Below, in pieces: positions 25,302-53,452 of a DNA stretch of 64,000 nucleotides. The notes beneath the pieces were generated by a model. The model ran no database searches. It was given only the letters and a program-made list of their open reading frames with translations, and was not told the DNA's origin. Origin of the DNA: Arcanobacterium ihumii (GTDB taxonomy: Bacteria; Actinomycetota; Actinomycetes; Actinomycetales; Actinomycetaceae); assembly GCF_900604515.1 (NCBI RefSeq), contig NZ_UWOS01000001.1:248001-312000 (forward strand), in the 5' to 3' direction. The position numbers and the translations under genes are program-made. The first letter of the stretch is position 1, and every line of letters starts with the position of its first letter.

Positions 25302-26957
25302 TTAAAAACGAGTATCTCGGTAGAATTCGATGAGTGCTCGAGTTGAAAGGTCTTGCTTAGCAAGTTCCTCTTCATCGCCGGCTACTGCCTTGGTCAGTTG
25401 GTTTGCCATCTGTTTGCCGAGCTCAACACCCCATTGGTCAAAGGAATCAATTCCCCATACGATTCCTTGGACGAAAGTGATGTGCTCATAGAGCGCGATT
25501 AGCTGCCCCAAAACACTCGGGGTAAGCGCCGGAGCCATGATCGAGGTCGTCGGCTTATTTCCAGGGAACACTCGTGCGGAAACAATCTCCTCACGGGCGC
25601 CTTCAGCTCGAACCTCGTCTTCAGTTTTTCCAAAGGCTAATGCCTTCGTCTGCCCAAAGAAATTTCCGAGGAACAGTTCGTGTTGATCAGCCTCACCATC
25701 TTTCAGCGCGTAGGTCGGATTCGAGAAAGCAATAAAGTCAGCCGGAATGAGTTGCGTTCCTTGATGAATCAACTGGTAGAAGGCGTGCTGACCATTCGTG
25801 CCAGGTTCGCCCCAGAAGACCTCACCCGTCGAAGAAGTCACTGGTGTGCCATCCCAGCGCACGCGTTTTCCATTTGACTCCATCGTGAGTTGCTGAAGGT
25901 AAGCAGGGAAACGGTGAAGATACTGCGAGTATGGTAGCACTACGTGGGTGGCAGCGCCTCGGAAATTGCAATAGAAAACGTTGAGCAGCCCCATTAGAAG
26001 AGGAACATTCTGGCTTGGTTCTGCATGGCGGAAATGCTCGTCCATCGTGTTGAAACCACCAAGGAAATCGGCGAATCCCTGTGGCCCAATTGCGACGGCG
26101 AGCGAGGTGCCTACCGCGGACCCAACGGAGTAGCGTCCACCTACCCAGTCCCAGAAGCCAAAAGAGTTAGCGGGATCGATACCGAATTCAGCAACTTTTT
26201 TGAGGTTGGTGGACACTGCTACAAAGTGCTTTGCAACAGCACCATCAGCGTCGATACCGCGTGCCTCGAATTCCTCGAGCAACCAAGCTCGCGCCTGACG
26301 TGCGTTGGTGAGAGTTTCAAGGGTTGTAAAGGTCTTGGAAGCCACAATGAAAAGAACCGTTTCAGGATCAATTCCGCGTAGCTTCTCCCCCAAATCCGTT
26401 GGATCGATATTGGAAATAAAACGGCATTCAAGGTTCTCTGCAACGTATGGTTTGAGAGCTTCATAAGCCATAACCGGGCCTAGGTCAGATCCACCAATTC
26501 CGATGTTGACTATGGTCTGAATTGGTCTTCCAGTTATGCCACACCATTCACCAGACCGAACTCGCTCAGCAAATTCGAAAATTTTTGCTAGAACTTCGTG
26601 GACCCCTGAAACAACGTCTTCCCCATCTACCAAAACCGAATTTCCTTCAGGCTGACGCAAGGCGGTGTGAAGAACTGCTCGACCTTCGGTGACGTTGATT
26701 TTCTCGCCACTAAACATGGCATCTCGACGCTCAACAACGTTCACCTCACGAGCAAGGTTCAACAATGCAGCCTTGATTTCATCAGTCATAAAGGACTTTG
26801 AAAGGTCAACGAAAAGGTCACCTGCGGCATAGGAATGCTTCTCCACTCGTTGAGGATCATCGTCAAACCAGCTACGGAAATCTACTTGGAGATTGTCGTT
26901 AAGTTTTTTTAGTTCGTTCCATGCTGATGTTTGGGTGGCGTCGACGGGTTTGACCAT
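25302..26957 (-). CDS. pgi: Glucose-6-phosphate isomerase
   Basis: 551 residues, the common length of the bacterial/eukaryotic-type enzyme. SIS folds with [19 protein letters not shown] near 153 (phosphate loop), [15 protein letters not shown] near 209, the catalytic Glu in [10 protein letters not shown] context followed by SNGKRVRW near 384, and the closing signature [13 protein letters not shown] near 507 with the catalytic Lys. GAGGAG precedes the ATG. It reads away from the fused phosphofructokinase gene, so the two consecutive glycolytic enzymes share a 293-nt divergent control region. Confidence 0.96.
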
Positions 26958-27131
26958 ATTCTTCTCCTCATTGCTCCAAAGGCGGCAATCATTCGTTCTA
27001 AAACGATGGCTATTGAACGACGAGTTGCACTCACAAGCATGTTACCCATCACTTCTCAACAAGTACCATTCCAACGTCCCATCCTCTCTCTTCCTTTGTT
27101 CACTTCCAACGAATCAGTAGCTATACGGTGG

Positions 27132-27168
27132 TGATCGCTCGCGATCATTTCAGATAATTTGATCTGAA
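27132..27168. promoter_or_regulatory. Two adjacent perfect palindromes between pgi and pfkA
   Basis: TGATCGC-TC-GCGATCA (27132-27147) and TTCAGAT-AATTTG-ATCTGAA (27149-27168) lie back to back about 80-120 nt upstream of the PFK start. A TATCAT (27174-27179) could be a -10 just downstream. The rest of the 293-nt gap 26958-27250 shows no gene. Operator role is inferred. Confidence 0.42.
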
Positions 27169-27250
27169 TCACGTATCATGATGACGGGGCGAGGACGCCG
27201 CCAACGTTTCTTCCATCGTTTATAAAATGGCAATGCTAAGGAGCATCCAG

Positions 27251-29566
27251 ATGAGCATGTCTGATCATGTGACAACCCCTGACGACGACCACAAAGTTGA
27301 GGCACCTGTACCTTCCAAGAAAATTCGGCTGGGTGTCCTCACATCGGGTGGTGACGCTCAAGGAATGAATGCCGTGGTTCGCGCCGTCGTACGCACTGCC
27401 TTGCACGAAGGTGCCACTCCTTTTGCAATTCGAGAAGGCTGGAAAGGTGCTGTTTTTGGGGGCTCACTCATTCAAGAAATGACGTGGAGCGACGTATCAG
27501 GAATTTTGGCTGCAGGTGGAACGCACATCGGCACAGCGAGATGTGCAGAATTCCGCGAGCGCTCTGGAATCAAGCAAGCCGTCTTTAACCTTGTTCAACA
27601 CGGCATTGATCGCCTAGTAATCATCGGAGGAGATGGCACTCTATCTGGTGCCGATGAGCTTCGCGAACTTTGGCCCGAACTCTTGAAGGAACTCACCGAC
27701 GAAGGAGCCATTTCCTCTGAAGTCGCTGATCGCCACCAAAAACTTCATATCGCCGGTGTTGTTGGATCAATCGACAATGACTTGGTGGGAACCGATATGA
27801 CAATCGGAGCTGACTCAGCTCTGCACCGCATTATTGAAGCCCTCGACGCACTTTCTTCTACCGCGGCCTCTCACCAACGCACCTTTGTTATTGAGGTTAT
27901 GGGCAGGCGCTGCGGCTATCTAGCACTTATGAGCGCTATCGCCGGTGGCTGTGACTACGTATTTATTCCCGAACTTCCGCCTGAAGATGGCTGGGAAGAT
28001 GCCATGTGCGAAAAGCTCCGCACCGGTCGTGCCCACGGCCGTCGTGATTCGATGGTCATCGTCGCCGAAGGTGCCACCGATCGCTCAGGTAATCCGATCA
28101 CAGCCACAATGGTTAAAGACGTTTTGGAGCAAAAACTAGGTGAAGATGCTCGCGTTACGGCCCTCGGTCACGTTCAACGCGGTGGAACACCATCGGCCTA
28201 CGACCGCTGGATGCCTACGCTCTTGGGTTACACCGCAGCTCATGAAGTTATCACCGCTGGAGCGAAAAACGAGCCAGTTATTATTGGCACTCGGCGTAAT
28301 CGTTTAGTTCGTCTACCGATGATGGAAGCAATCAAAAACACTCGTGCAGTTAAGAACTACCTCTCACAGGGAAATTGGGATGCCGCAATCGAGGCTCGTG
28401 GCAAGGGCTACCGTGAGATGATCGAAATTTTCGAAACGATCTCTTCCCCTGATCCATCGCCACATCGTCCTTGGCCAACATCGCCTCGAGTAGCTATTAT
28501 CCACGCCGGAGGTCTCGCACCTGGAATGAACGCAGCCGCTAGAGCAGCTGTGAAACTTGGACTCGATCGCGGCTTTACAATGCTTGGAGTTGAGGGTGGC
28601 TTCCCAGGCTTACTTGAGAGCAAGGTTCGAGAGCTTAATTGGGGCGATGTAGAAGGATGGGTTGAAGACGGCGGTGCAGAGCTTGGTACGCGCCGCACGG
28701 TCGCAACCGTGGACCAGTTCTACCAATTGTCTCGGGGTATCGAAAACGCAGGTATCGATGCACTCGTTGTAATCGGCGGATTCAAGGGATATAAGGCCGT
28801 TTACGACATGGTTAGCGAACGTGATCGCTACCCTGCTTTCCGCATCCCGATTATCTGCGTCCCTGCCAGTATTGACAATAACCTTCCTGGTTCAGAGCTC
28901 GCTATTGGGGCAGACACCGCGTTGAATAACAACGCTCAGGTTTTAGATCGAATCAAGCAATCGGCGTCGGCATCTCAGCGTTGCTTCGTTGCCGAAACGA
29001 TGGGACGACGTTGTGGTTACCTAGCATTGATGAGTGCAATTACCACCGGCGCGGAGCAAGTTTACCTATCCGAAACCGGAATTACGTTACCTCAACTTGC
29101 ACAAGATACCAAACGTATGATCAATGCCTTTAAGGGCGGTCGCAATCTGTATCTGGTAGTGAGGAATGAAGATGCATCCGAGTACTATACAACGGATTTC
29201 ATTTCACGCATTTTCGAAGAAGAAGGTGGCGGCCTTTTCGACGTACGCTCTTCGATTCTCGGGCATATGCAACAGGGTGGAAACCCGACACCGTTTGATC
29301 GTACCTTGGCTGTACGCATGATGAAAACGGCGATGGATTCGCTTAATGAACAGCTAACCCATGGGAAAGATGGTGCAATGCATGTGGGCCAGCACGACGG
29401 TTTGATCCAAGCATTCCCGGTTTCACATATGACCGATTTGATTGATATGGAGTCGCGCCTACCCTACGATCCCTGGTGGCAGAATCTCAAGGATATCCTC
29501 TATGTGATGGCTGATCCGACTTTTGACAAAGAACTCGAGCATTTGTCTTTGGTGATCGATAAATAA
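27251..29566 (+). CDS. Fused, eukaryote-type 6-phosphofructokinase
   Basis: 771 residues, about twice the 320-residue bacterial enzyme. Two complete PFK folds are joined in one chain: N-half about 25-390, C-half about 410-771. The N-half has TSGGDAQGMN (32-41), IGGDGT (125-130), catalytic GSIDNDLVGTD (172-182), EVMGRRCGY and GHVQRGGTPSAYDR. The C-half has HAGGLAPGMN (418-427), VIGGFKGY, a degenerate ASIDNNLPGSE (539 on; catalytic Asp to Asn), ETMGRRCGY and GHMQQGGNPTPFDR. This pairing of a catalytic and a degenerate half, with the linker VRLPMMEAIK...EARGKGYREM, is the animal/fungal PFK-1 plan. Start chosen at the ATG after AAGGAG; eight upstream codons are unsupported. Catalyses fructose 6-phosphate phosphorylation; the C-half may serve as allosteric site. 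Confidence 0.93.
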   Translation: MSMSDHVTTPDDDHKVEAPVPSKKIRLGVLTSGGDAQGMNAVVRAVVRTALHEGATPFAIREGWKGAVFGGSLIQEMTWSDVSGILAAGGTHIGTARCAEFRERSGIKQAVFNLVQHGIDRLVIIGGDGTLSGADELRELWPELLKELTDEGAISSEVADRHQKLHIAGVVGSIDNDLVGTDMTIGADSALHRIIEALDALSSTAASHQRTFVIEVMGRRCGYLALMSAIAGGCDYVFIPELPPEDGWEDAMCEKLRTGRAHGRRDSMVIVAEGATDRSGNPITATMVKDVLEQKLGEDARVTALGHVQRGGTPSAYDRWMPTLLGYTAAHEVITAGAKNEPVIIGTRRNRLVRLPMMEAIKNTRAVKNYLSQGNWDAAIEARGKGYREMIEIFETISSPDPSPHRPWPTSPRVAIIHAGGLAPGMNAAARAAVKLGLDRGFTMLGVEGGFPGLLESKVRELNWGDVEGWVEDGGAELGTRRTVATVDQFYQLSRGIENAGIDALVVIGGFKGYKAVYDMVSERDRYPAFRIPIICVPASIDNNLPGSELAIGADTALNNNAQVLDRIKQSASASQRCFVAETMGRRCGYLALMSAITTGAEQVYLSETGITLPQLAQDTKRMINAFKGGRNLYLVVRNEDASEYYTTDFISRIFEEEGGGLFDVRSSILGHMQQGGNPTPFDRTLAVRMMKTAMDSLNEQLTHGKDGAMHVGQHDGLIQAFPVSHMTDLIDMESRLPYDPWWQNLKDILYVMADPTFDKELEHLSLVIDK

Positions 29567-44645: not shown

Positions 44646-47600
44646 ATGACTTTATCTAAACGAGCATCACACGCATGCTCGATTATCTCCACAACCGCAT
44701 TGGCGATCGGAATAATCGCTACAATACCCGATACTGCATTTGCAGAGCCGGCCTCGCATCCAGCACCAATTACCGACCTCTCAAAACCTGCCTCAACCAC
44801 CGATTCAAATGACCGAATCTGGAGTGGAATTGACGGCACACGGTATGGCGATTCCATCCGGAAGACGGCCCGTGCAACTTACACCGACGGAGGAAGTACG
44901 CCACCTGTGATGTGCGACGTGACGGGTGATACCGCCGTCGACACAATCTACGTCAACTCAAAAACAAACGAATTAACCGTAGTTCCCTTCATCCCTTACG
45001 GATCAGACACCGACGACGTTACCACCACGTTGACTAAGCAACCTAAAGCTCTTCGTTTTACCCTCCCTCAAGGAGACGAGGGTAGTTGGCAATCTAGCTG
45101 TGTGAAGATTAAGCGTGGCAGTAAAGCTGGCCTAATTGTTGCCCGAGGAAAACACGCTTATGTCATTTCCTTAGATTCGGGTAGCAACTCCACTGGCGCA
45201 AGCACTACGTCCGGTGATGAGCCACGATCCGCGACGGTTGTGGGTACCTACGAGTTCGACGGCGCAGTGCGCGCTATTTCCGCTACCTCACCTTCCATCG
45301 AAGAGCCAGAGTTCGTCGTGGCCGCAAACGGGCACCTCTATCTGTTTAATGAGGCAAGCAAAACCGGCACTATTAAAGCCAGTGAAGCAACCAAGAACTG
45401 GACTATTCCAAGCGACGAAGCGACCACTTTAGCTCCCCTAGGTGAGGCCTTCAAGAATTCTGCCGCCATCGGCATCGGCCTCCCCGGAAAAGATATTGTC
45501 TATGCCCTGAACACAGATTTGGAGAGTGGACCTCTATCAGATCGTGCAGTGGCGATCACTGGCTCCACCAGTAACACCACTCAAGGGGCATCTGGATTTG
45601 GGACGTCGATAGTCGGAATCTCTGACGTAAATGGAGATGACATCGACGATTTCGCCGTCGGAGCACCGCTAGCAAACAATAAATCTGGAGCCGTAGCAGT
45701 CATTTACGGTACACAAGATCGCCCGCAGAAGATCCAGGTACAGCTTGACTCAACCTCGGATTCACCGGTGTTAGCTGATCAGAAATCAAACGGCACTCTC
45801 ATTCGCCAGACAGCTCATGGCAGGATCGGCATCTCGCTTGGCTACGTCCAGCAGTACGACGTAGACAATGCCGGTGCACTGGTAATTGGGCGTCCCGATA
45901 ACGAAGAGCATCCAGGTGCGGTTGTGGTTTCAACATCGGCTTTGACGAAAAACTGGAACACAGCTCTAGGTTTGGATTCGATCCCAAATAGTCAACGAGT
46001 GTGGCTCGCTAGCGATGAAGGAAAAGGCGGCGGCGGCACCTTCGTTGCAACGATCCCAACTGCCGACGCCGATCAGCAGCTCAGTGGCATCTTGACCGGA
46101 GATTCCAATGGCAAGATTGACGTCTGGACTGTGGATATGCGACGCCAGCACGAAAAAACTCCCGAGGTTGATCCGCTCTACCCTGCGCCAGCTATCCCTC
46201 CACAGCCTGCATCAATCAAACCGATAAATACCGCTACTGCGAAGCGTTGGGTTGGGGAATTCAGTAACGGCCTTGGTAGCTCGATCGCCCGCGGCAGCTG
46301 CGATGTAACTGGTGACGGTAAGCCAGATTTAATTACGAGTTCCCCGGTTCGTTCTGAATGGAAGTTTGACGTTCACTACGAAAAGTCAACGCCAACTCAC
46401 GGTTGGTTATTAAATGTTACCGGGCAGATCCAGATTTTCCCGAATGGAATCAGCGGTAGCGCACTGCCTGACGAATCGGTGATCACGATTCTCGGACCTA
46501 AACATACCCAAGATCCCGCCGTTGACGCTTCGGTTGGTCTATCGATCGCGTGTATCGGCGATGTCAATAAAGATGGCATTTCGGATATTGCTGTCAATTC
46601 ACACACGATGGGTCGAGTTTGGGTTCTCTTTGGTGGCGATACTTTGCGCCAAGTTGATCTCAATAACTTGAATCCTGCCCACGGCTACTACGTCTCCATG
46701 CCACATGAGATGGGTGCCGCCGGTTACCAGGTAACGCGCGTAGGCGATATCAACGGTGATGGACGCGATGACGTTGGATTCGTCGTCGCAAATACGCCAC
46801 TGTCTCGCGGAGATAAGGGATCTTACGGAACTGCGTTGATTGTTGCTGGTAAGAGCGACGGCAAATCGATTGATTTAACTGAGGATTACAATGATCCAAA
46901 CGTTCTTTGGCAAGCACGTACTCCCGATGGACACACTCTCAGCGCCTTCACCCCGATTGGCGATGTTAATGGCGACTCGGTTCAAGATTATGTGCTAGCT
47001 GATTTCAATGACTTTTCGAAGAAGGGTACGATTCCTGGCAAAGCCTGGGTCGTCTATGGTACTCAGGGGAAGGCAAATCTGAACCTCCAAGACGGAGTGC
47101 CCGGCTACACCCTTTCAATTTCGGACGACGCTTCCTATCGCCTTGGAGCAGGTAATTCTATTGCTCCTGTTGGCGATGTTAACCACGACGGAATCGGTGA
47201 CTTCGTAATCGGTTTCGACGGCGGTCAGATTGCTAAAACCGCACGTGGCGGTATTGCCTTGGTACATGGATCGAAATCCCCAAGCACCACTAATGACAAT
47301 ACGAATGTGGTCCCAACACTCGTCAATACCGGCGGTTTTGCTACCCGGGCACGCTCTACGCAGCCTAACGCAACCTCGTCAAACGGCGTGGATATTTCCG
47401 TTTTGCTTGGCGAAGAAGCAGGCTCTGGCTTCGGATGGGCAATCGATGCTCTTCCAAAGGACGGTCTTATTGCTGTTGGCGCGTGGGGTGAGAACAAGAA
47501 CGGTGCCGCTTACCTGCTAAAGGCAGCAGACATCCCCACCGGAATCACTTCAATCAATGATCTTGGCACCAAAGTAAAGAAAATCGATACCGACGCCGAA

Positions 47601-48008
47601 CGCTCACGGTTTGGTCGCTCAGTCGCTTTTATTGGAGATTACCTGGGTAACTCAACACTAGCTATCGGCGCTGACGGAGTCATTGACGATGCAGGTGCAG
47701 ATGAAGAAGGGTATTCACACGCTGCACATATCGTTGCTTATGACGTGAACGCCTTGCTCGATGCCAAAACTGAACCTTCGGATTCGGGCTCTTCGCCGTC
47801 GGGACCAACAAACGGTACCGCGGGCAATTCCGCTGCTCATGGTGGAGACTCCAACACTCAAGGCGGGTCGTCTTCACAGGTTCACGTTAAGGACCTTGCT
47901 ACAACCGGATCGCATCTTTTCCTTCTAACCGGTCTGTTTGTAGCGTTGATCAGTGCTGGCGTGCTGATCGCGGGTAGGCAAAGTAAACTCCATCGACGCT
48001 CGGAGTAA
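44646..48008 (+). CDS. Large FG-GAP repeat surface protein with LAXTG sorting signal
   Basis: 1120 residues. Signal peptide 1-33 ending AFA; extracellular part built of at least seven integrin-alpha/FG-GAP type blocks, each with a DxNGDxxxD calcium loop (DVTGDTAVD, DVNGDDIDD, DVTGDGKPD, DVNKDGISD, DINGDGRDD, DVNGDSVQD, DVNHDGIGD), consistent with a beta-propeller. A Ser/Gly/Thr-rich stalk (about 1040-1080) leads to LATTG (1084-1088), a hydrophobic helix and RQSKLHRRSE, i.e. a cell-wall sorting signal of the LAXTG class used by class E sortases. AAGGAAG precedes the ATG. A near-perfect iron box covers the promoter. Adhesion or iron/haem capture is suspected; no direct ligand motif is seen. Confidence 0.88.
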   Translation: MTLSKRASHACSIISTTALAIGIIATIPDTAFAEPASHPAPITDLSKPASTTDSNDRIWSGIDGTRYGDSIRKTARATYTDGGSTPPVMCDVTGDTAVDTIYVNSKTNELTVVPFIPYGSDTDDVTTTLTKQPKALRFTLPQGDEGSWQSSCVKIKRGSKAGLIVARGKHAYVISLDSGSNSTGASTTSGDEPRSATVVGTYEFDGAVRAISATSPSIEEPEFVVAANGHLYLFNEASKTGTIKASEATKNWTIPSDEATTLAPLGEAFKNSAAIGIGLPGKDIVYALNTDLESGPLSDRAVAITGSTSNTTQGASGFGTSIVGISDVNGDDIDDFAVGAPLANNKSGAVAVIYGTQDRPQKIQVQLDSTSDSPVLADQKSNGTLIRQTAHGRIGISLGYVQQYDVDNAGALVIGRPDNEEHPGAVVVSTSALTKNWNTALGLDSIPNSQRVWLASDEGKGGGGTFVATIPTADADQQLSGILTGDSNGKIDVWTVDMRRQHEKTPEVDPLYPAPAIPPQPASIKPINTATAKRWVGEFSNGLGSSIARGSCDVTGDGKPDLITSSPVRSEWKFDVHYEKSTPTHGWLLNVTGQIQIFPNGISGSALPDESVITILGPKHTQDPAVDASVGLSIACIGDVNKDGISDIAVNSHTMGRVWVLFGGDTLRQVDLNNLNPAHGYYVSMPHEMGAAGYQVTRVGDINGDGRDDVGFVVANTPLSRGDKGSYGTALIVAGKSDGKSIDLTEDYNDPNVLWQARTPDGHTLSAFTPIGDVNGDSVQDYVLADFNDFSKKGTIPGKAWVVYGTQGKANLNLQDGVPGYTLSISDDASYRLGAGNSIAPVGDVNHDGIGDFVIGFDGGQIAKTARGGIALVHGSKSPSTTNDNTNVVPTLVNTGGFATRARSTQPNATSSNGVDISVLLGEEAGSGFGWAIDALPKDGLIAVGAWGENKNGAAYLLKAADIPTGITSINDLGTKVKKIDTDAERSRFGRSVAFIGDYLGNSTLAIGADGVIDDAGADEEGYSHAAHIVAYDVNALLDAKTEPSDSGSSPSGPTNGTAGNSAAHGGDSNTQGGSSSQVHVKDLATTGSHLFLLTGLFVALISAGVLIAGRQSKLHRRSE

Positions 48009-50530: not shown

Positions 50531-53452
50531 TTAGATGTGAGCTTCGTTCGAGGTCCGCGATACGAGACGAACGGATGTGTTGAGATAATCAAACAAATTT
50601 TGTTCGACCGGGGAATCCAACGAAAGGTTCATCGTCACCACCGAAAGAGGGTCACCATCCTTATTGGGCATTACCGTTTGAATCTCGTTACTCGGTCGAA
50701 CTTGGCCGAGGTAATAAAAATCATTGCCTTCGGCATCATCCTTCTTCACAAACAAATGTAATTCATAGTCGCCGCTCAGAATTTTTTGCACTTCGCCACT
50801 TTGAAACGTACGATTCGACCGTGTGAACCAGTGCAACGTCGATAGATCCAAGAACTGATCCTCGTACTTCACGGAATCCGCGATCTCATCACCCTTATGA
50901 TAGGTGACGAAAATTGGACAAGTCTTCGAAAATTCGTCCACTTTATATCCGTAAACTGTGCTTTCCTCGTTCGACTTGAAATTGAGAAGGCGGCAAACTT
51001 CGCGGCGTGCGTACTTGTTCCCCACTTTCATATTGTTTGACCATGATTCGTGGTGCCGAGCTAAGAAAAGGCCAGTTTGGACGATATCCTTTACGCTTTC
51101 GCGGAAGGCGACGTCGGTGCGAAGTTCGCGTTCAAAATCCTCACTCAGTCTATAAACGTTTTCTTCTGTTAGGACAACGACGGGGACCTTACCATATCTT
51201 TGTTGTTGCTGAGCTTTGTAGAATCTCAGCGAGAGCACTCTCTCAACAGAGTCAAGAGTTTTTTCGTCGCATCCCACATTTTTAGCTGCATAGTATTCAG
51301 AAAGCGTCTCCCTTGAAACAGAATTATCCCTAAGTAACAGTTCCAGCAATAACAGTTCATGAGGTCGTTTACCAGGCAATATCTCTGCCGAAAGGAAGTT
51401 CAGAAATTGCATAGCTTGAGCCGGTGGCACAGAATCAATGAACTTTGTTTTGTGTAGGAGAGCTAAGTAGTTATCACATCGCTTAGCCATGAGCACCGGA
51501 TCAGTTGTATCTTGTGAAACGAAATCCATCAAGCGAGGAATTCTATTCAGGCGATCCACTAGTTTTTGGATTTCGGACTTCAGCTCTCGAAGTGAATCAA
51601 TCTTTGTCACTTCAATAGATTTGAGAATGCGCGCCTGCGAAATTTGATCGAAGTTAATCGAGGAAATTCCCGCGATGGAGTTATCCGTTTTATTTTCAAT
51701 GAGGTGCTCACGAATACGATCTTTGTTTCGCGAGTTCTCGCCAAAAAGAGCGATCGGAATAAGGTAATTGTTCTTGTAGTTTCCGATAAAGTCGATAACT
51801 CGAAGATGATCTTTGCCTTCAAATTTACGTAAGCCACGCCCAAGCTGCTGAGTAAAAATGATCGAAGATTGCGTGTTGCGAAGCATCACGACTTGATTCA
51901 CCGACGGGATATCGATGCCCTCGTTGAAAATATCAACCGACAGGATGTAGTCCAGTTCTCCATCGGCCAGTTTCTTAATTGCTAATTCTCTGGACTGAAT
52001 CGAATCACTTCCAGCCAAGTACTGAGTTTTCAGCTTCTTACCGTGGACAAACTCTTCATTAAGCATGTCCGACATTTCTTTGGCCTCTGCGACTGTCGAA
52101 CAGAACATCAGCCCTTTGACATCACGGGTAAATCCATATTTTTCAAGCATCGAAACAATGTATTTTACTCGCTCTGGAAGAATGAGGTTACTGAGCTGGG
52201 AAGTGTCATCGATCGTTTGGTTCGAACTGTCCACGTAGTCGGTAACACCGAAGTAGTGGAATGGAACCAGCATCTTTTCTTCAAGTGCAGCTTGAAGCCT
52301 AATCTCATAGGGAACATTAAAATCGAATAATTCAAAGACGTTGAAATCATCTGTTCGTTCAGGAGTTGCTGTGAGACCTAACAAGAAATTTGGCTCAAGA
52401 TAATCAATAACATTCCGATAACTAGCCGCGCCCGAACGATGTACCTCGTCAATCATGACGAAGTCAAAGGCAGCAGGATCAATTGAGGCAAGAGTATCTG
52501 GCCGAGAAAGAGACTGAACCGTTGCGAAAACGATGCGTTTGTCGATCTCTCGCCTAGCTCCAGCAAACAAACCGAACTCAGATTCAGCACACTCTAAAAC
52601 CCGTGCAAATTCGGATTTCGCTTTAATTAAAATTTGCTCGCGATGAGCAATAAAAAGCCCGCGTTTCGGCTGTGCTTCTTTTAGCGCCAATGCCGCTAAT
52701 ATCGTTTTTCCTGTTCCAGTTGCCGAAATAACAACTGCTCTACGCTCGCCTGCTTCACGTAAAAGTGCAATTTGTTCAAGAGCACGCGTTTGCATCAAAT
52801 TTGGTTGAATTTTCCCATCAACCAAAATGGAATTATCCGCATCGTTAAGGACGGAGACGGGATTGAGGTTTCGTGTTTCTTCATATTCACGAATCCACTG
52901 CGTGGTGAGCGGAATTGATTCCCTCAGTTGCTCAAACGTAGCAGTGGCTAATTCTTCAGCAATTTTGCCGTCTGGTGCGGCCGAGAATTTCAAGTTCCAC
53001 TCACGGTTCTTTTTCAGTGCTTTATCGGTTAGGTTCGACGAACCGATAATTGCAGTAACTGAATCTGAACGATGGAAAATATATCCCTTTGCGTGGAAAC
53101 CTACGCCGGGTTTGTCATGCACCCAAACGTTTACGTTTGGCAGCAGTAATAGTTCTTCGAAAACTGCAGGTTCGTTGAAATCGAGGTAGCGCGAAGTAAT
53201 AATTTCGCCCCTACCATCAAAATCTGCCAGAACTTGTTTCAACATCGCGAGCGCCGACGACGTTATAAAAGCAACCGAGAAAATGAAGCTGTCACATCGC
53301 CTAAGTTCTTGCTGTATCGCAACCAGCATCGACTGCGACTCATTGTTCGAAATGAGTGAAGGGTTAAGTAGTTGCTCCGTTACCGGAAGATTTTTATTGA
53401 TAAAGCCAAACGCAACTGATTGTTCAAGCGCACTATTTCCCCACATACTCAC
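50531..53452 (-). CDS. PLD-nuclease/SF2-helicase/DUF3427 protein
   Basis: 973 residues. An N-terminal phospholipase D-like half-site (HAKGYIFHRSD near 120, then GSSNLT near 137; HxK and SxN kept), an SF2 helicase core with Walker A ATGTGKT (244-250), DEVH (335-338), TATP (361), motif VI TQQLGRGLRKFE near 526, and a C-terminal region (about 620-973) of DUF3427 type ending in a beta-rich YELHLFVKKDD segment. It starts 10 nt after mutT, with GGAG before a GTG (53452) or the ATG two codons on. DNA is AT-richer (38-42% GC in three sampled 60-base lines) than guaA (57% in one line). I infer a nucleic-acid defence or repair role; none is proven. Confidence 0.86.
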   Translation of the reverse strand: MSMWGNSALEQSVAFGFINKNLPVTEQLLNPSLISNNESQSMLVAIQQELRRCDSFIFSVAFITSSALAMLKQVLADFDGRGEIITSRYLDFNEPAVFEELLLLPNVNVWVHDKPGVGFHAKGYIFHRSDSVTAIIGSSNLTDKALKKNREWNLKFSAAPDGKIAEELATATFEQLRESIPLTTQWIREYEETRNLNPVSVLNDADNSILVDGKIQPNLMQTRALEQIALLREAGERRAVVISATGTGKTILAALALKEAQPKRGLFIAHREQILIKAKSEFARVLECAESEFGLFAGARREIDKRIVFATVQSLSRPDTLASIDPAAFDFVMIDEVHRSGAASYRNVIDYLEPNFLLGLTATPERTDDFNVFELFDFNVPYEIRLQAALEEKMLVPFHYFGVTDYVDSSNQTIDDTSQLSNLILPERVKYIVSMLEKYGFTRDVKGLMFCSTVAEAKEMSDMLNEEFVHGKKLKTQYLAGSDSIQSRELAIKKLADGELDYILSVDIFNEGIDIPSVNQVVMLRNTQSSIIFTQQLGRGLRKFEGKDHLRVIDFIGNYKNNYLIPIALFGENSRNKDRIREHLIENKTDNSIAGISSINFDQISQARILKSIEVTKIDSLRELKSEIQKLVDRLNRIPRLMDFVSQDTTDPVLMAKRCDNYLALLHKTKFIDSVPPAQAMQFLNFLSAEILPGKRPHELLLLELLLRDNSVSRETLSEYYAAKNVGCDEKTLDSVERVLSLRFYKAQQQQRYGKVPVVVLTEENVYRLSEDFERELRTDVAFRESVKDIVQTGLFLARHHESWSNNMKVGNKYARREVCRLLNFKSNEESTVYGYKVDEFSKTCPIFVTYHKGDEIADSVKYEDQFLDLSTLHWFTRSNRTFQSGEVQKILSGDYELHLFVKKDDAEGNDFYYLGQVRPSNEIQTVMPNKDGDPLSVVTMNLSLDSPVEQNLFDYLNTSVRLVSRTSNEAHI

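What the first reader, a model, noticed from the sequence alone, without database searches (positions are those of the whole stretch)
27251..29566. Fused, animal/fungal-type phosphofructokinase in an actinobacterium
Seen: one 771-residue chain holds two PFK folds. The N-half keeps GSIDNDLVGTD, and the C-half carries a degenerate ASIDNNLPGSE at the same place. The linker, ILGHMQQGGNPTPFDR and RLPYDPWW regions also follow the human PFKM order. Established: bacterial PFKs are about 320 residues; the fused catalytic-plus-regulatory chain is the eukaryotic PFK-1 plan. Inference: either horizontal transfer or an ancient shared fusion, and the C-half may be an allosteric site.
Basis: partly seen in the sequence, partly recalled or inferred. 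Interest (0 to 1): 0.85.

Follow-up and report, generated by a model that had tools for sequence, protein, structure and literature searches.

The report
Shared eukaryote-type fused phosphofructokinase in bacteria
This bacterium makes a double-length sugar-burning enzyme built on the same two-part plan as the animal and yeast enzyme, and that plan is shared by ancestry with other bacteria, so it is a real member of a known family rather than an oddity.

Summary
Confirmed. Window 27251-29566 (+) encodes one intact 771-residue chain of two PFK domains. It scores 951 bits against TIGR02478 (eukaryotic-type PFK; cut-off 708), and its model matches human liver PFK-1 end to end (TM 0.92). It is not a one-off: over-cut-off matches occur in 126 of 151 genomes of the window's family, 25 of 396 across the phylum and 10 of 194 of a Lentisphaerae MAG's phylum. 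In a 70-row tree all N-halves, bacterial and eukaryotic, form one clade and all C-halves another; independent fusion is rejected (p-AU 4e-37). So there was one old, shared fusion; how the bacterial and eukaryotic branches are ordered, hence the direction of any transfer, is unresolved. The N-half keeps the catalytic, F6P and GGDG residues. The C-half has lost the ATP/Mg site but keeps five sugar-phosphate residues in 68 of 68 bacterial rows, although 0 of 151 family genomes has a 6PF2K gene over cut-off. Best reading: ATP-dependent glycolytic PFK with a non-catalytic regulatory half. A Chloroflexota paper already reported bacterial members.

The parts
27251..29566 (+). fused two-domain ATP-type 6-phosphofructokinase, 771 aa (longest ORF from 27227, 779 aa)
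27238..27243 (+). AAGGAG, Shine-Dalgarno-like, 7 nt before ATG 27251
   Evidence: read by eye
27326..28243 (+). N-terminal PFK domain (catalytic half)
   Evidence: PF00365 336 bits; catalytic, F6P and GGDG residues kept
27626..27637 (+). GGDG, ATP/Mg motif of the N-half (residues 134-137); GGDG marks ATP-type PFKs
   Evidence: numbering; motif meaning from PMC12203962 section 9
27764..27796 (+). GSIDNDLVGTD catalytic motif of the N-half (residues 180-190)
28244..28486 (+). inter-domain stretch between the two PF00365 matches
28487..29341 (+). C-terminal PFK domain (regulatory half)
   Evidence: PF00365 288 bits
28775..28786 (+). GGFK, where the N-half has GGDG: ATP/Mg site lost (residues 517-520)
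28865..28897 (+). ASIDNNLPGSE, degenerate catalytic motif (residues 547-557): D127 kept, D129 to N
25302..26957 (-). glucose-6-phosphate isomerase (pgi), divergent neighbour; same arrangement in 13 of 26 related loci
   Evidence: NF001211 786 bits; neighbourhood
26958..27250 (.). pgi-pfk divergent intergenic region; the consensus promoter scan named no site here

Best explanation
An ATP-dependent glycolytic 6-phosphofructokinase that is homologous over nearly its whole length to eukaryotic PFK-1. One ancient duplication and fusion gave the N-half and C-half, and this enzyme shares that fusion with other bacteria and with fungi and animals (shown by trees). Catalysis is by the N-half (residues kept: shown; activity: inferred). 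The C-half can no longer bind ATP/Mg in the usual way but keeps most of the sugar-phosphate pocket (residues shown), and most likely acts as an allosteric sugar-phosphate site (inferred). The ligand is probably fructose-1,6-bisphosphate or F6P rather than fructose-2,6-bisphosphate, since no 6PF2K gene was found over cut-off (inferred). The gene appears to be inherited largely vertically within Actinomycetaceae; in the window's genome it is the only ATP-type PF00365 gene, beside a separate PPi-PFK.
For: TIGR02478 951 bits against a cut-off of 708. PDB hits 1-11 of 28 are all eukaryotic PFK-1; mammalian chains align to query residues 18-769 at the widest, yeast chains to about 17-704. Model pLDDT 89.4; of the 50 Foldseek rows shown, ranks 1-36 are eukaryotic PFK-1 (TMq 0.87-0.92) and ranks 37-50 single-domain PFKs (TMq 0.36-0.38). 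Tree of 70 rows: N-halves 100/98, C-halves 100/100, 22 singles apart 96/89; a clade of bacterial N plus bacterial C is rejected, p-AU 4.03e-37. D103, G104, D127, D129, R162, M169, E222, R243, H249, R252 kept in 68 of 68 bacterial N-halves; in the C-halves D103 and G104 are each kept in 0 of 68, R252 in 0 of 68, both D127 and D129 in 0 of 68, while R162, R243, M169, G170 and E222 are all kept in 68 of 68. Own genome: the only other PF00365 gene is a PPi-PFK, NF005121, 721 bits. 6PF2K over cut-off in 0 of 151 family genomes.
Against: No activity or effector data. The 6PF2K search had no control over the cut-off (0 of 14; 3 rang weakly) and no eukaryote, so its power was not shown; 3 of 151 family genomes gave weak sub-threshold hits. 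Residue roles and E. coli numbering are recalled. ATP-pocket positions 41, 73 and 111 of the window's N-half differ from E. coli (W, C, E). H249 is lost in 12 of 68 bacterial C-halves. 21 of 151 family genomes lack the gene by my count of the rows, so losses or transfers occurred.
Confidence: 0.88

Rival explanations
1. Horizontal transfer of an animal or fungal PFK-1 gene into this actinobacterial lineage.
For: Best PDB matches are mammalian; N-half 50% and C-half 40% identical to rabbit PFKM. Once the Gammaproteobacteria MAG L029 is put with them, a clade of eukaryotic and Actinomycetales-type rows is not rejected: p-AU 0.068 for N-halves, 0.445 for C-halves (with L029 left outside it was 0.028).
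Against: Rabbit and yeast rows form their own clade without the window (N 96/87, C 100/96) and bacterial N-halves exclude the eukaryotic ones at 98/84. The gene is over cut-off in 126 of 151 family genomes and has deep relatives in other bacterial groups.
Confidence: 0.05
2. Independent duplication and fusion in Actinomycetota that converged on the eukaryotic plan.
For: Each half resembles single-domain PFKs, so a second fusion is conceivable; no call supports it.
Against: N-halves group with N-halves and C-halves with C-halves across bacteria and eukaryotes; p-AU 4.03e-37. D103 and R252 are lost in all 68 bacterial and 5 eukaryotic C-halves examined.
Confidence: 0.01
3. The C-half still phosphorylates a sugar, so the chain has two active kinases.
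For: The window's C-half keeps D127, R162, R243, M169, E222, H249.
Against: GGDG has become GGFK, D129 is N and R252 is Q.
Confidence: 0.04
4. The C-half pocket is a relic with only a structural role, without ligand.
For: No effector tested; no 6PF2K gene found to make F2,6BP; H249 lost in 12 of 68 and R171 in 14 of 68.
Against: Five sugar-contact residues are unchanged in 68 of 68 bacterial C-halves, which come from Actinomycetota, the phylum of a Lentisphaerae MAG and two MAGs named Pseudomonadota; unexpected for an unused site.
Confidence: 0.15

Closest known systems
Eukaryotic ATP-PFK / PFK-1 (TIGR02478; IPR009161), e.g. rabbit PFKM 3o8l, human PFKL 8w2g, yeast 3o8o
   Same: Two fused PFK domains in the same order, catalytic N-half, C-half without an ATP/Mg site, homology and fold over nearly the whole chain.
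   Different: Bacterial host without a 6PF2K gene over cut-off; the window's C-half keeps D127 and R171 (lost in 5 of 5 eukaryotic rows) and M169 (lost in 4 of 5). The eukaryotic N1/N2 nucleotide sites and C-terminal tail were not compared.
Chloroflexus aggregans Cagg_2702, 747 aa (PMC8004040, passages seen)
   Same: Bacterial PFK assigned to 6PF1K_euk, double length, beside a second PFK gene.
   Different: There the second gene is a 356-aa 'bacterial' PFK; here it is a PPi-PFK.
Bacterial single-domain ATP-PFK (PfkA; TIGR02482), e.g. E. coli, B. stearothermophilus
   Same: Fold of each half; catalytic and F6P residues of the N-half.
   Different: About 320 aa and one domain; groups apart from both halves.

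Membership tests
TIGR02478 / eukaryotic-type ATP-PFK (PFK-1) | Whole-protein score over the curated cut-off | tested here: met
   951.1 bits against 708.4
TIGR02478 / eukaryotic-type ATP-PFK (PFK-1) | Two tandem PFK domains in one chain | tested here: met
TIGR02478 / eukaryotic-type ATP-PFK (PFK-1) | Same fusion event as the eukaryotic enzyme | tested here: met
   (eukaryotes sampled: rabbit and two yeasts only)
TIGR02478 / eukaryotic-type ATP-PFK (PFK-1) | Catalytic N-half, catalytically dead C-half | tested here: inconclusive
   met by residues; no activity measured
TIGR02478 / eukaryotic-type ATP-PFK (PFK-1) | Activation by fructose-2,6-bisphosphate, inhibition by ATP and citrate | not testable with these tools
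   no assay; 6PF2K not found over cut-off in 151 genomes
ATP-dependent PFK by donor motif | GGDG and Gly before TIDND/SIDND in the active half | tested here: met
   GGDG at 134-137, GSIDND at 180-185; motif rule, and its exception, read in PMC12203962 section 9
Single-domain bacterial PfkA (TIGR02482) | One domain of about 320 aa, grouping with such PFKs | tested here: not met
   (the whole protein does pass the TIGR02482 cut-off, 486 against 371 bits, with 3 matched stretches)

The most novel reading that the evidence does not exclude
The two-part, allosterically controlled PFK-1 is a bacterial invention that eukaryotes received, and its regulatory sugar pocket first answered to a plain glycolytic sugar phosphate (FBP or F6P), being recruited to fructose-2,6-bisphosphate only later. 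The C-half decayed in steps: ATP/Mg site and R252 first (in all lineages examined), the catalytic Asp pair afterwards and differently in each lineage.
Probability: 0.35. Interest if true: 0.75.

Novelty: new member of a known kind. Interest (0 to 1): 0.48.

Why it matters
A 2025 review (PMC12203962; abstract, passages and sections 5, 7 and 9 read) and a 2026 preprint (PMC12889660, passages seen) describe the tandem fusion as a step in eukaryotic PFK evolution, though the review also reports wide gene transfer between bacteria and eukaryotes in the superfamily. The trees here show the same fusion in several bacterial groups. That gives living bacterial enzymes in which one can ask what the regulatory half did before, or without, fructose-2,6-bisphosphate.

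Tried and rejected
Independent fusion was rejected. The order of the deepest branches was not settled: eukaryotic plus Lentisphaerae-type N-halves p-AU 0.14; eukaryotic plus Actinomycetales-type rows p-AU 0.028 with the MAG row L029 left outside, but 0.068 with it inside, and 0.445 for the C-halves. Bacterial N-halves form one clade (98/84), but bacterial C-halves did so in only 1% of bootstrap trees, while an AU test does not reject it (0.376); the two halves thus give no firm common root. On rechecking I raised the transfer rival from 0.04 to 0.05 for this. Plasmid and phage collections gave single-domain-length places only among the 25 and 10 records listed (41 and 24 further records not listed). 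No Chloroflexota genome was reached. The promoter scan found no site in the pgi-pfk gap. Ten paper searches were answered; apart from PMC8004040 no title or abstract start listed there speaks of a bacterial fused PFK, but most listed papers were not opened, one search listed 5 of 12,487, and the library is open-licence only. PMC1665464 was looked at for PFK (passages) and added nothing.

Rows: 68 bacterial fused proteins = the window, all 26, 24 of the 25 over-cut-off loci (own copy dropped), 8 of the 10 loci, 9 of the 10 over-cut-off loci (copy of L028 dropped). The tree used 20 of these 68, 4 of 5 eukaryotic proteins and 22 of 32 single-domain PFKs extracted; one search used 27 of the 32 (5 divergent or PPi-type rows dropped).

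Full report
What is there. The window lies in an Arcanobacterium-like genome; the nearest relatives of the protein are A. bovis (86%) and A. pluranimalium (85%). The protein matches TIGR02478 at 951 bits (cut-off 708) and PF00365 twice. Of 28 PDB sequence hits the top eleven are eukaryotic PFK-1 chains; mammalian ones align almost end to end, yeast ones to about residue 704. The AlphaFold model (32-row alignment, pLDDT 89.4, pTM 0.90) matches human liver PFK-1 at TMq 0.92 and rmsd 1.5; ranks 1-36 of the 50 rows shown are eukaryotic PFK-1.

How common it is. Over-cut-off matches to TIGR02478 occur in 126 of 151 genomes of the window's family (three of them only when neighbouring stretches in the frame are summed); by my count of its rows, 4 more carry fragments and 21 lack it. 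In a phylum-wide draw 25 of 396 have it, the window's own included. It is in 10 of 194 genomes of the phylum of a Lentisphaerae MAG, that MAG included. In the phylum of a Gammaproteobacteria MAG it is in 1 of 299, and that one is the MAG itself, so Pseudomonadota support rests on two MAGs (L019, L029), whose genes branch beside the Actinomycetales-type genes; binning error is not excluded. 0 of 14 control genomes have it over cut-off. Names include Actinotignum, Actinobaculum, Boudabousia, Cutibacterium, Austwickia and a Nakamurella MAG. In print, Chloroflexota homologues are reported (PMC8004040, passages seen), with the remark that they are not general in other bacteria.

One fusion. The full-length tree of 73 rows (quick method) puts the window with Arcanobacterium and leaves the 5 eukaryotic rows on one side of a branch, SH-aLRT 98. 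The tree of halves plus 22 single-domain PFKs (70 rows) groups all 24 N-halves (100/98) and all 24 C-halves (100/100), with the singles apart (96/89). Holding bacterial N- and C-halves together costs 186 log units, p-AU 4.03e-37. A Trp at E. coli position 54 is shared by 46 of 68 bacterial N-halves, 67 of 68 bacterial C-halves and all 10 eukaryotic halves, and by 0 of 27 singles, which fits duplication of one ancestor.

Who gave it to whom. Bacterial N-halves exclude the eukaryotic ones at 98/84, but bacterial C-halves are one clade in only 1% of bootstrap trees, and AU tests reject neither a bacterial C-clade (0.376), nor eukaryotes with the Lentisphaerae type (N, 0.14), nor eukaryotes with the ten Actinomycetales-type rows (N 0.068, C 0.445). 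So the order of the deepest branches, and the direction of any transfer, is open. Only rabbit and two yeasts stand for eukaryotes, and Chloroflexota are missing. What is clear is that the window gene does not fall inside the opisthokont clade and follows its own family.

How it works. E. coli residue numbers and roles are recalled; positions were mapped by alignment. In the N-half D103, G104, D127, D129, R162, M169, E222, R243, H249 and R252 are kept in 68 of 68 bacterial rows; positions 41, 73 and 111 of the ATP pocket vary. GGDG and GSIDND indicate ATP as donor (rule and its known exception read in PMC12203962 section 9). In the C-half D103, G104 and R252 are each kept in 0 of 68, and D127 and D129 are together in 0 of 68: 36 have D127/N129 (the window among them), 18 N127/D129, 8 N/N, and 6 other pairs; the 5 eukaryotes have S/N. 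On a C-half tree built without those columns, the D127/N129 rows are one side of a branch (100/99), position 129 needs one change and position 127 five. The sugar-phosphate residues R162, R243, M169, G170 and E222 are all kept in 68 of 68 C-halves; H249 in 56 and R171 in 54 of 68. [quoted passage not shown] No 6PF2K gene passes the cut-off in the window's genome or in 151 family genomes, with 3 weak sub-threshold hits and no control over the cut-off. So the pocket's ligand here is probably another sugar phosphate; that is inference.

Surroundings. pgi lies head to head with the gene in the window and in 13 of 26 related loci (L004-L015, L027); one more (L018) has it on the same strand, and 12 show none in the stretch held. 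The only other PF00365 gene of the genome is a PPi-PFK (GGDD, PKTIDND). This fits a split between a one-way ATP enzyme and a reversible PPi enzyme, by inference.

Verdict. The gene is an ordinary member of a named family for its own taxon. The less ordinary point is that the plan described in recent papers as a eukaryotic development is shared by bacteria in which no gene for fructose-2,6-bisphosphate synthesis was found.

Noticed in passing
window 44646-48008 (+): 1120-aa protein with FG-GAP repeats (Pfam PF01839); no NCBIfam model at 1e-20.
   Followed up: no
window 50531-53452 (-): 973-aa protein with PLD-like, ResIII helicase and DUF3427 domains, a layout that could be a defence or repair gene.
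   Followed up: no
family genomes G444, G468, G486: Fused PFKs whose two domains match as separate stretches with a longer gap between them (open frames of 860-895 aa), perhaps a linker insert.
   Followed up: no
family genome G423 C1:336972-339153: The fused PFK is split into two adjoining pieces, possibly a frameshift in gene or assembly.
   Followed up: no
L084, Cutibacterium avidum: Besides the fused PFK, this genome carries a further single-domain PFK match of 306 bits in a 609-aa open frame, which pairs with a Lentisphaerae MAG single PFK (L077) in the tree at 100/100.
   Followed up: partly
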